A stretch of 33,800 nucleotides of DNA, taken from positions 1 through 33,800 of the IMG/VR virus record IMGVR_UViG_3300037674_000276; one strand, written 5' to 3'. Below the pieces are notes generated by a model. It made no database searches. It saw only the letters and a program-made list of their open reading frames with translations, and had not been told where the DNA came from. How positions within the stretch are numbered: the stretch's first letter is position 1; the number at the start of each line of letters is the position of its first letter. Below are positions 3,843 to 7,475 of this stretch, piece after piece. Both the position numbers and the translations under genes were made by a program. The stretch is from a virus.

Positions 3843-4430
3843 ATGAAACTAAAAGTAATTGATATAAGTATCAAAGGAATAACCCCCTTGCTACAACACA
3901 GGTTCAGCGAAGCTGCTGAAGTGTCCGGCGGGAAGGCAACCAGAACAGTTGTCAGGACTGACGAAACCCCACGGGAATCTGCCGACAAGGTGTGCTACCG
4001 GAACAAGGAAGGTGAGTTCTATATGCCATCAACCTGCATCCACCGTATGCTCATTGAGGCTGGCAGCAACCACAAGCTCAAAGGCTCGCGCAAGTCAGCC
4101 AAGTATGTGGTGAGTGGCGCAGTCCAAATGACATCCGACTCAATCATCATCGGGAACGGTGACGGCAAGACACCCGCCAAGGACTTCGAGGTGGACAGTC
4201 GCCCCGTTGTAATCCCCGCAACCAAGGGACGCATCATGCGACACCGCCCAAGGTTCGATGACTGGTCAAGCAACTTCTCGTTGAGAATAAATGAAGACCT
4301 GTTACCGGAGGATTTCGTCCACCAGTTGCTCGATGAGGGCGGCTTGCAGGGTGGCATCGGAGACTTCCGCCCACAGAAGTTTGGCCCGTTCGGCACGTTC
4401 CTTGTGACTGGATGGAAACCCCAAGCCTAA
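3843..4430 (+). CDS. Phage protein next to ERF, RAMP-like glycine-rich loop, 195 aa
   Basis: Function unknown. The N-terminus (VIDISIKGITPLLQHRF) and the C-terminal glycine-rich stretch (EGGLQGGIGDF, then FGPFGTFLVTGW, about residues 166-191) resemble the first strand and G-rich loop of ferredoxin-like RAMP proteins such as Cas6/Cas7. That is a pattern resemblance only, and no CRISPR array or other cas gene is present. A central segment, MPSTCIHRMLIEAG, is helical, and RHRPRFDDW precedes the final region. AGGAAAGG lies upstream of ATG 3843, and the gene closes the ERF transcript before a terminator. Its position suggests a part in recombination, perhaps nucleic-acid binding, but that is inference from neighbours. 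Confidence 0.7.
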   Translation: MKLKVIDISIKGITPLLQHRFSEAAEVSGGKATRTVVRTDETPRESADKVCYRNKEGEFYMPSTCIHRMLIEAGSNHKLKGSRKSAKYVVSGAVQMTSDSIIIGNGDGKTPAKDFEVDSRPVVIPATKGRIMRHRPRFDDWSSNFSLRINEDLLPEDFVHQLLDEGGLQGGIGDFRPQKFGPFGTFLVTGWKPQA

Positions 4431-4435
4431 ATCAT

Positions 4436-4463
4436 CTGCGCCTCCGCTGGGGGCGCAGTCTTT
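4436..4463 (+). terminator. Rho-independent terminator
   Basis: CTGCGCCTCC (4436-4445) pairs with GGGGGCGCAG (4449-4458), a 10-bp GC-rich stem with one U-G pair and a three-base loop. TCTTT follows. It lies five bases after the stop of the 195-aa gene and directly before the pentamer array. Of the hairpins noted here it best fits an intrinsic terminator, though the T-run is short. Confidence 0.65.
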
Positions 4464-4464
4464 A

Positions 4465-4717
4465 GGTATGGTGCGGTATGGTAAGGTGCGGTGAGGTCAG
4501 GTAAGGCTCGGTAAGGTTAGGTATGGCAGGGTGGGATTAGGCGTGGTGGGGTAAGGCTGGGCAAGGTAAGGAATGGTTTATGAATTTAGTTCGGCATGGT
4601 GAGGCGTGGTGAGGTACGGTCAGGAGATGTCTGGTGTGGTAGGGTACGGTACGGCAACGTCTGGTGTGGTAGGGTACGGTACGGTCGGGTTAGGTAGGGT
4701 AAGGAATGGAATGGTTA
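4465..4717 (+). repeat. GGTNN pentamer array, 48 units in two blocks
   Basis: On the + strand the sequence runs with a strict five-base period. Block 1 is 4465-4579 (23 units) and block 2 is 4593-4717 (25 units), separated by 13 bases of unrelated AT-rich sequence (4580-4592). By my count, 45 of 48 units begin GG and 33 begin GGT; bases 4 and 5 vary (GGTAA, GGTAC, GGTGA, GGTAT, GGCAA and others). The period is not a multiple of three and no coding frame fits. The array lies between a terminator and the split nuclease gene. A protein-binding array, a recombination hot spot, or a G-rich RNA/DNA structure are the options I can offer; none is shown by the sequence. Confidence 0.9.
4629..4684 (+). 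repeat. 26-bp direct duplication within the pentamer array
   Basis: Positions 4629-4654 and 4659-4684 are identical over 26 bases, offset by 30 bases (six pentamers). This suggests the array has grown recently by duplication of a six-unit block, through slippage or unequal exchange. Elsewhere the units have diverged from one another. Confidence 0.85.
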
Positions 4718-4737
4718 CAATTAAAGGAAGTAAATAA

Positions 4738-4944
4738 ATGACAGAGATAAATCATAACGATAGGGCGCATCACCCTGACTTCCCCCCGTCATCGCTGCCA
4801 GCACTGGCAAAGTGTCCGTGCTATAAGTCATCGGATACGGTAGGGGAAGCGGCAAAGCGCGGAACAAGACTTCACGAAAAACTGGAGTCACTACTCAAGA
4901 GCGATGAACTTCGCAAGATAACCAAGAAAGACACAAGCAAATGA
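4738..4944 (+). CDS. N-terminal part of a Cas4/RecB-like PD-(D/E)XK nuclease, 68 aa
   Basis: The protein holds PPSSLPALAKCPCYKSS followed by GEAAKRGTRLHEKLESLL. This is the typical opening of Cas4/RecB-like nucleases: a Ser-Ser-Leu start, a Cys-Pro that can ligate an iron-sulphur cluster, and the GTxxHExLE motif I helix. The frame stops 20 residues later, before the catalytic Asp and the D/E-x-K motif. Those motifs appear about 1.1 kb downstream in the gene at 6047-6637. Together the two would give 264 aa, a normal length for the family. AAAGGAAG upstream of ATG 4738 is a good ribosome site, so this half is likely translated. It could be one subunit of a split enzyme or the remnant of a broken gene. 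Confidence 0.65.
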   Translation: MTEINHNDRAHHPDFPPSSLPALAKCPCYKSSDTVGEAAKRGTRLHEKLESLLKSDELRKITKKDTSK

Positions 4945-5881: not shown

Positions 5882-6063
5882 AAGAAACTAAATTGGAGCA
5901 ATGGGAGAAGATTGCCTACACAATACTGGCTGACCCCAAGGCCAGTAGGAGTGAGGTCGACTGCGCCCTTACTGGAATTACTCAGAGCAAGAACACTTGG
6001 CTCAGGGAACAACTGCAACTCAAACGAACGAAAGCTTGGACTGCTAATGTCAAACAAATCTAA
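5878..6063 (+). CDS. Hypothetical protein, 61 aa
   Basis: Not recognised. The sequence (MKETKLEQWEKIAYTILADPKA, then ALTGITQSKNTWLREQL) is mostly predicted helix and basic at the end. Its ATG overlaps the stop of the 29-aa gene. Its last 17 bases overlap the start of the nuclease C-terminal gene at 6047. In the overlapping frame a longer form of the nuclease from 5912 is possible, but that extension is rich in Arg, Pro and Ser and unlike the family, so this 61-aa frame is the better reading. Confidence 0.55.
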   Translation: MKETKLEQWEKIAYTILADPKASRSEVDCALTGITQSKNTWLREQLQLKRTKAWTANVKQI

Positions 6064-6637
6064 ATACCCCAAGGAAGTAATCTGGGCAGCGCAATACATA
6101 CTGTCGGTGTGCGGCAGGAAGAAGCTGGTAACCGAGCAGAGGGTGGAGATAATGCGGGACGGGGTTCCCGTTTCATTCGGCAGCATGGACGCCTACTGCA
6201 AGGGCCACCTGTTCGACCTGAAGACAGGGCAGGTACGTGATTACAAGCAGCAAATGGCTGCATACGCATTGGGGGTTATGCAGAAGTTTGGTGACAAGAA
6301 GCTGACCTGCCACTTGGTTTACTCAAGATTCAAGAGAGCAGACACCTTTGACCTGACAATGACCGAGGCACAGGATATTGTTTACGGCATCATGGATTCA
6401 GTAAACGACCCAACAAGGTCGCCTTGGCCCTGTAGCTATTGCGCTTGGTGCGCTAGAAAAGAAAGCTGCACCGCCTTAAATCAATTCGCTTACACCGTCA
6501 CGGGCCAACTGGAAGCGATGAGGAAGATAAATCTCAATGGCCCGATTACCCCCGCCGTCCGTGAACGGCTTCTCTCCATAGTGAGTGCTTTGGAGGGGTG
6601 GGCGTGTCGAATCAGAGAGAAGGTAAACAAGGAATAG
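6047..6637 (+). CDS. C-terminal catalytic part of a Cas4/RecB-like PD-(D/E)XK nuclease, 196 aa
   Basis: This part carries the catalytic core of the family. FGSMDAYCKGHLFDLKTGQ supplies the motif II Asp and motif III D-x-K-T-G, and RDYKQQMAAYALGVM supplies the conserved Gln helix. The C-terminal cluster CSYCAWCARKESC has four Cys that could hold an iron-sulphur cluster. The opening MSNKSKYPKEVIWAAQYIL is where an intact homologue would continue from its motif I helix; that helix and the first Cys are encoded at 4738-4944. I choose ATG 6047 because upstream residues in this frame do not look like the family. In Cas4/AddB-like enzymes such proteins resect or trim DNA ends; near ERF, end processing for annealing is a natural role, by inference. 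Confidence 0.75.
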   Translation: MSNKSKYPKEVIWAAQYILSVCGRKKLVTEQRVEIMRDGVPVSFGSMDAYCKGHLFDLKTGQVRDYKQQMAAYALGVMQKFGDKKLTCHLVYSRFKRADTFDLTMTEAQDIVYGIMDSVNDPTRSPWPCSYCAWCARKESCTALNQFAYTVTGQLEAMRKINLNGPITPAVRERLLSIVSALEGWACRIREKVNKE

Positions 6638-7019: not shown

Positions 7020-7475
7020 ATGGAAAAGAAAACAAATAAAAAGGACAAGGAGCAATACGTTCCAAGCGAAGCGGAACTTACAGTAACACGAATGGCTGTC
7101 GTCGCATCGGCGATGGCCTTCGGTGTTGAGGCTGAAGACATACTCGGAAGGAGAAGAGGTAACGAGAAGATTACGATGGCAAGGATGACTTGCTACTGGC
7201 TGCTCCGCAAGATGGAGATGATGTCTTACGTTAGAATTGGAGCCGCCATTGGCGGCAAGCACCACGGTTCCGCGATGAACGGGTTCCGCAGAATCGAGTC
7301 AGAGATAGAGCTTAACCTCAGGGGTGGCTACATCACTTGCATAAGTGATGCCATTGATTACTACACGGACTTCCGCAAGGAACTCAAAAGGAAAGAGCTT
7401 GCCCGCAAGCGCAGGGAGTTTAGCAGTAACTCCGAAAAGGTTGATGCATCAACCTTGGAAGGAGCAACGCGATGA
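7020..7475 (+). CDS. Stand-alone DnaA domain IV-like DNA-binding protein, 151 aa
   Basis: Residues about 21-98 match the C-terminal DNA-binding domain of DnaA: RMAVVASAMAFGVEAEDILGRRR, then ARMTCYWLLRKM, then IGAAIGGKHHGSAMNGFRRI. The last corresponds to the DnaA signature GGRDHxTVxHAxxKI. There is no AAA+ ATPase domain. In bacteria this domain recognises DnaA boxes at the origin. A phage protein with it alone could mark a phage origin, compete at host boxes or act as a regulator. The last 40 residues are basic. The upstream ribosome site is weak (AGAAAGAG). Palindrome copy 2 lies within its last codons, just before the next gene, which looks like a replication protein. Confidence 0.75.
   Translation: MEKKTNKKDKEQYVPSEAELTVTRMAVVASAMAFGVEAEDILGRRRGNEKITMARMTCYWLLRKMEMMSYVRIGAAIGGKHHGSAMNGFRRIESEIELNLRGGYITCISDAIDYYTDFRKELKRKELARKRREFSSNSEKVDASTLEGATR
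7437..7456. promoter_or_regulatory. Palindrome copy 2 (operator or RNA hairpin)
   Basis: AAGGTTGATGCATCAACCTT is a perfect 20-base palindrome inside the 3' end of the DnaA-like gene, encoding KVDAST. It ends 15 bases before the ATG at 7472, with the GGAAGGAG ribosome site in between. The same core occurs at 2924 and 29366. Folded as RNA it would make an eight-pair stem with a TGCA loop near the ribosome site. Confidence 0.65.

What the first reader, a model, noticed from the sequence alone, without database searches (positions are those of the whole stretch)
4465..4717. Long GGTNN pentamer array beside the recombination genes
A strict five-base period runs for 48 units in two phase-shifted blocks: by my count 45 of 48 begin GG and 33 begin GGT, while positions 4-5 are free. 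It is strand-biased, non-coding, and follows a terminator next to ERF, a resolvase-like nuclease and a Cas4-like nuclease. Variable bases with a fixed GG beat suggest selection for spacing of GG rather than one motif. One protomer of a filament or multimer per five bases, a Chi-like recombination array, or stacked G-rich structures would fit. I do not recognise it as a described element.
Basis: partly seen in the sequence, partly recalled or inferred. Interest (0 to 1): 0.8.

Follow-up and report, generated by a model that had tools for sequence, protein, structure and literature searches.

The report
Phage VIPR guide-RNA repeat array
The five-base repeat is the guide-RNA array of a recently described phage-encoded, CRISPR-related system called VIPR, whose Cas7-like protein is encoded by the gene just upstream; this is a new example in an uncultivated phage, not a recombination site.

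Summary
The array is real: 48 pentamers in two blocks, 45 start GG, 33 GGT, 41 GGY; the best 20-unit stretch has 19/20 GG, shuffles reach at most 13. It is non-coding. The recombination-site reading is not supported. The constant partner of such arrays is the gene just upstream, 3843-4430 (phrog_4652), predicted with high confidence to have a Cas7/Csm3-like RAMP fold and matching the solved 'SUSP1 Vipr protein' (PDB 36pp). Of 25 viral contigs fetched only by degenerate GGYNN DNA, 22 encode this family, against 0 of 40 controls. All distant homolog loci examined (Felix O1-like, LESphi2, Gordonia, Mycobacterium phages) have GGYNN arrays beside the gene, same strand. A 2026 preprint (PMC13142463) describes this: VIPR systems, in which a Vipr protein uses vrRNAs of GGY/NN repeats plus a 3' tail to bind DNA, NN pairs matching the target with one base skipped. 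The window is a new member, with unusually long guide blocks (20-21 units) and no identified accessory gene. Close relatives carry about 4 and 14 blocks at the same place, so it is not an assembly artefact. Targets remain unknown; expression and binding are untested here.

The parts
3843..4430 (+). vipr gene: 195-aa RAMP (Cas7/Csm3-like) protein, phrog_4652
   Evidence: PHROG 7.5e-23; PDB 36pp 'SUSP1 Vipr protein' E 2.2e-7 single sequence, 2.4e-41 by 49-sequence profile; AlphaFold2 pLDDT 91.1; Foldseek 4.8e-8 and VIA-align Z 13.1 to Csm3
4436..4458 (+). Strong hairpin between the vipr stop codon and the array
   Evidence: -18.9 kcal/mol, z -4.0; hairpins of different sequence at the same place in L002 (-27.1) and L003 (-25.3)
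4465..4564 (+). vrRNA guide block 1: 20 pentamer units, GGY-NN
4565..4588 (+). Tail/separator 1: GGTAAGGAATGGTTTATGAATTTA
   Evidence: Same element ends nearly every block in L002 and L003
4593..4697 (+). vrRNA guide block 2: 21 pentamer units, containing a 30-bp tandem duplication at 4630-4689
4698..4722 (+). Terminal tail variant: GGTAAGGAATGGAATGGTTACAATT
   Evidence: Resembles the last tails of L002 and L003 (GGTAAGGAAAGG...GGTTACAA), just before the next gene

Best explanation
The array encodes guide RNAs (vrRNAs) of a phage VIPR system and the gene at 3843-4430 encodes its Vipr protein. Proposed working, inferred from the published SUSP1 and P. fulva systems: the array is transcribed on its G-rich strand into RNAs each holding one block of GGY/NN repeats and a 3' tail. 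Vipr subunits assemble along the RNA as a Cas7-like filament, probably one per pentamer; the GGY bases are not paired to the target, while the free NN pairs base-pair with double-stranded DNA, skipping one target base between pairs. Bound DNA is silenced, mainly genes of competing phages or satellites. Shown here: the array, its register, the predicted RAMP fold, homology to Vipr, the tight gene-array linkage, and different guides in close relatives. Not shown here: transcription, RNA binding, and targets.
For: Array statistics. Profile match to PDB 36pp 'SUSP1 Vipr protein'. Confident model with Csm3/Cas7 fold. Linkage: 22/25 array-selected contigs encode the family against 0/40 controls, Fisher p 2e-14; all homolog loci examined in named phages have same-strand GGYNN arrays; across about 60 loci the array is usually within 50 bp of the gene. 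3489 units: position 3 is 79% T and 18% C, positions 4-5 free. Blocks mostly 10-14 units, matching the 9-16 repeats published. Relatives keep tails but carry different guides: only one guide block is shared between L002 and L003, none with the window. Preprint PMC13142463 defines this architecture and shows the mechanism in SUSP1.
Against: The window's blocks have 20-21 units, longer than the 9-16 published for two clades. The tail shows no stable fold, whereas SUSP1's is reported as a pseudoknot. No accessory (vap) gene was identified (for two candidate families). No convincing target was found under the skip rule. The mechanism rests on one preprint and on other phages.
Confidence: 0.93

Rival explanations
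1. A Chi-like or annealing array used by the neighbouring recombination genes (ERF, RusA-like, exonuclease).
For: Next to ERF (PF04404 4.7e-22), a RusA-like resolvase and an exonuclease; G-rich and strand-biased.
Against: ERF was found beside Vipr in only 1 of 43 sampled loci, this clade's own relative; the array accompanies the RAMP gene in phages whose annotated neighbours are quite different.
Confidence: 0.03
2. An RNA site for autoregulation: the protein binds GGYNN repeats in its own transcript, as TRAP binds GAG/UAG repeats.
For: Period-5 triplet repeat on the same strand as the gene, often in its immediate flanks.
Against: Arrays of up to about 200 units in many blocks, some well away from the gene (L246); free bases differ between relatives; the published homolog uses the RNA as a guide (PMC13142463).
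Confidence: 0.03
3. Two-tier RNA or DNA G-quadruplexes with 3-nt loops.
For: GGN3 repeats satisfy the sequence motif.
Against: Loop length would not need to be exactly three over 20 units, nor a pyrimidine at position 3 in 97% of units; does not explain the constant RAMP partner.
Confidence: 0.01

Closest known systems
VIPR (Viral Interference Programmable Repeat), Escherichia phage SUSP1 type (PMC13142463)
   Same: RAMP protein homologous to SUSP1 Vipr; same-strand GGY/NN arrays beside the gene; constant 3' tail after the blocks; phage-encoded
   Different: Vipr only about 23-27% identical to Felix O1-like homologs; 20-21 units per block instead of 9-16; tail without a stable predicted fold; no recognised vap gene
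Class 1 CRISPR-Cas (type III Csm3/Cas7 effectors)
   Same: Same RAMP fold; variable RNA segments separated by constant ones
   Different: No CRISPR repeats and no cas genes recognised near the array; pentamer register with a GGY code inside the guide
TRAP-binding RNA leaders (from general knowledge)
   Same: Three fixed and two free bases, period about five
   Different: Different fixed bases, unrelated protein fold, many blocks

Membership tests
VIPR | Vipr protein: small RAMP homolog | tested here: met
   36pp match; Csm3/Cas7 fold, Z 13.1 over 161 residues, rmsd 3.7
VIPR | Array of GGY alternating with free NN next to the vipr gene | tested here: met
   41/48 GGY in register, array starts about 35 bp after the vipr stop codon
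VIPR | 9-16 repeats per vrRNA (published for the SUSP1 and P. fulva clades) | tested here: inconclusive
   Window blocks hold 20 and 21 units before the tail; most blocks in L003 and in other loci are within or near the range
VIPR | Constant 3' tail after the repeats | tested here: met
   GGTAAGGAATGGTTTA(A)TGAATTTA ends blocks in the window, L002 and L003; a stable secondary structure was not found
VIPR | Accessory vap gene | tested here: inconclusive
   phrog_5926 and phrog_15946, recurrent neighbours of other Viprs, were not found in the window; the published vap families were not available for search
VIPR | vrRNA transcribed and bound by Vipr | not testable with these tools
   Needs RNA sequencing and pull-down
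VIPR | NN bases match DNA targets with a one-base skip | tested here: inconclusive
   Five scans of viral contigs with 8-unit patterns gave 2-53 hits each, none extending convincingly
VIPR | Encoded mainly by viruses | tested here: met
   IMG/VR record with terminase and portal genes
CRISPR array | Near-identical repeats separating unrelated spacers | tested here: not met
   Blocks are GGY-constrained throughout; tandem-repeat search and block dissection show no CRISPR-type repeat

The most novel reading that the evidence does not exclude
This clade is a distinct VIPR variant: no accessory gene, guides of about 20 units (roughly 60 bp of target) or overlapping guides within one block, a short unstructured tail, and a hairpin separating vipr from its array.
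Probability: 0.25. Interest if true: 0.5.

Novelty: new member of a known kind. Interest (0 to 1): 0.45.

Why it matters
VIPR is a newly reported RNA-guided system proposed as an ancestor of CRISPR. This work recovers its defining gene-array link independently, starting from a DNA pattern alone, adds dozens of uncultivated viral examples, and gives a clade in which guide number (about 2, 4 and 14 blocks) and content differ between relatives, so guide turnover can be studied.

Tried and rejected
Chi-like or ERF-linked array: rejected by the neighbour survey. Plasmids: no real array found by blastn, with low-complexity filtering as a caveat. Rfam found nothing in the arrays of 12 sources. Natural targets: an all-against-all test in sequences held showed no clear preference for any skip length, and viral scans gave no convincing match. 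The best, in a gp7-like baseplate gene of a marine T4-like contig (L318), matches 23 of 26 NN bases over units 8-20, with shuffle p 0.024 for the 12 upstream units before correction for 19 hits, so it is a lead only. Peptides read from the guides matched no phage record.

Full report
Observation. The best 20-unit stretch has 19 GG in register; 2000 dinucleotide shuffles of the array never exceed 13, and the rest of the window never exceeds 9 on either strand. No listed ORF covers it. The change of phase is a separator, GGTAAGGAATGGTTTATGAATTTA.

Relatives. The protein encoded just upstream (3843-4430) found two viral contigs with 85% identical homologs. Both have the array at the same place. 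L003 holds about 14 blocks over 1.2 kb and L002 about 4, nearly all ending in the same tail, with different free bases; only one guide block is shared between L002 and L003, and none with the window. Independent assemblies therefore support the element.

The partner gene. A viral-wide scan for GGTNN repeats returned many contigs with long degenerate GGYNN arrays. Of 25 such contigs, 22 encode phrog_4652, the family of the window's 3843-4430 protein; of 40 control contigs, none does, Fisher p 2e-14. Within the loci of the first scan the table is 31/13 with degenerate arrays against 4/72 without; several of the 13 are short loci whose contig does encode it (for example L011 and L025). In the other direction, homologs only 23-27% identical, found by protein search in Felix O1-like, LESphi2, Gordonia and Mycobacterium phages, all have 10/10 GGYNN arrays beside the gene on the same strand in the loci examined. 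In about 60 loci the array usually lies within 50 bp of the gene and on its strand; L083 is the one exception in strand. Many of those loci were fetched by the array itself, so they do not count as independent evidence for array presence. Over 3489 units position 3 is 79% T and 18% C and positions 4-5 are free; the T share is inflated because the scan asked for GGT. Most unbroken blocks have 10-14 units.

The protein. The 49-sequence profile matches one solved chain strongly, PDB 36pp 'SUSP1 Vipr protein', E 2.4e-41, and next, weakly, Csm5; the window protein alone gives 2.2e-7. The AlphaFold2 model (pLDDT 91.1, pTM 0.84) has Csm3/Cas7 proteins as its top structural matches (Foldseek 4.8e-8; VIA-align Z 13.1, 161 residues, rmsd 3.7).

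What it is. The preprint PMC13142463 (bioRxiv, April 2026) describes VIPR: a phage-encoded RAMP protein, Vipr, with vrRNAs of 9-16 GGY/NN repeats and an invariant 3' tail; NN pairs recognise double-stranded DNA with one skipped base, usually the codon wobble base, and the complex silences competing phages. Fold, homology, array grammar, tail and adjacency all agree, so I file the window as a VIPR system. Transcription, RNA binding and targeting are inferred from that work, not shown here.

Particular features. The window's two blocks have 20 and 21 units before the tail, longer than published for two clades; they may be long guides or overlapping ones. The second contains a 30-bp tandem duplication (4630-4689). 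The tail shows no stable fold. A strong hairpin separates vipr from the array, with hairpins of different sequence at the same place in L002 and L003. No accessory gene was recognised. ERF, RusA-like and exonuclease genes are neighbours in this clade, but ERF did not recur beside Vipr elsewhere.

Targets. Five viral-contig scans with 8-unit gapped patterns gave 6, 19, 53, 19 and 2 hits; extension beyond the searched core was near chance. One marine T4-like baseplate gene (L318) is a weak lead. Targets are therefore unknown.

Conclusion. A real and functional-looking element, of a kind first described months before this scan; a new member with some unusual features.

Noticed in passing
window 4738-4944 and 6047-6637: A PD-(D/E)XK nuclease of the DUF2800 family appears split into two ORFs with four small ORFs between; joining them raises the Pfam score from 33.5 to 42.2 bits and moves the start of the profile match from position 82 to 23. 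The small N-terminal ORF is also separate in L002 and L003.
   Followed up: partly
window 7020-7475: ORF with a DnaA C-terminal DNA-binding domain (PF08299, 1.4e-10) in the phage's early-type region.
   Followed up: no
L102:1047-1627 (-): In this 50%-identity relative several guide blocks are separated by TTTCTCTGGCGAGAAATTTTT, a terminator-like hairpin apparently used as a tail.
   Followed up: no
L265, L266 (Felix O1-like phages): Segments between arrays could form H-type pseudoknots, with compensatory changes between copies (for example GTAGTTAGTCTCAACTACATTAAAATGAGAC); read by eye; the preprint reports a pseudoknot tail for SUSP1.
   Followed up: partly
43 Vipr loci: Two families of unknown function, phrog_5926 (8 proteins) and phrog_15946 (7 proteins), recur beside Vipr genes and are accessory-gene candidates.
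   Followed up: partly
L083:6592-7380 (-): Only locus in which the GGYNN array lies on the strand opposite to the Vipr gene.
   Followed up: no
L246: Contig with 14 or more long blocks, up to 79 units without a break, spread over about 10 kb around Vipr, plus a second weaker Vipr-like ORF.
   Followed up: no
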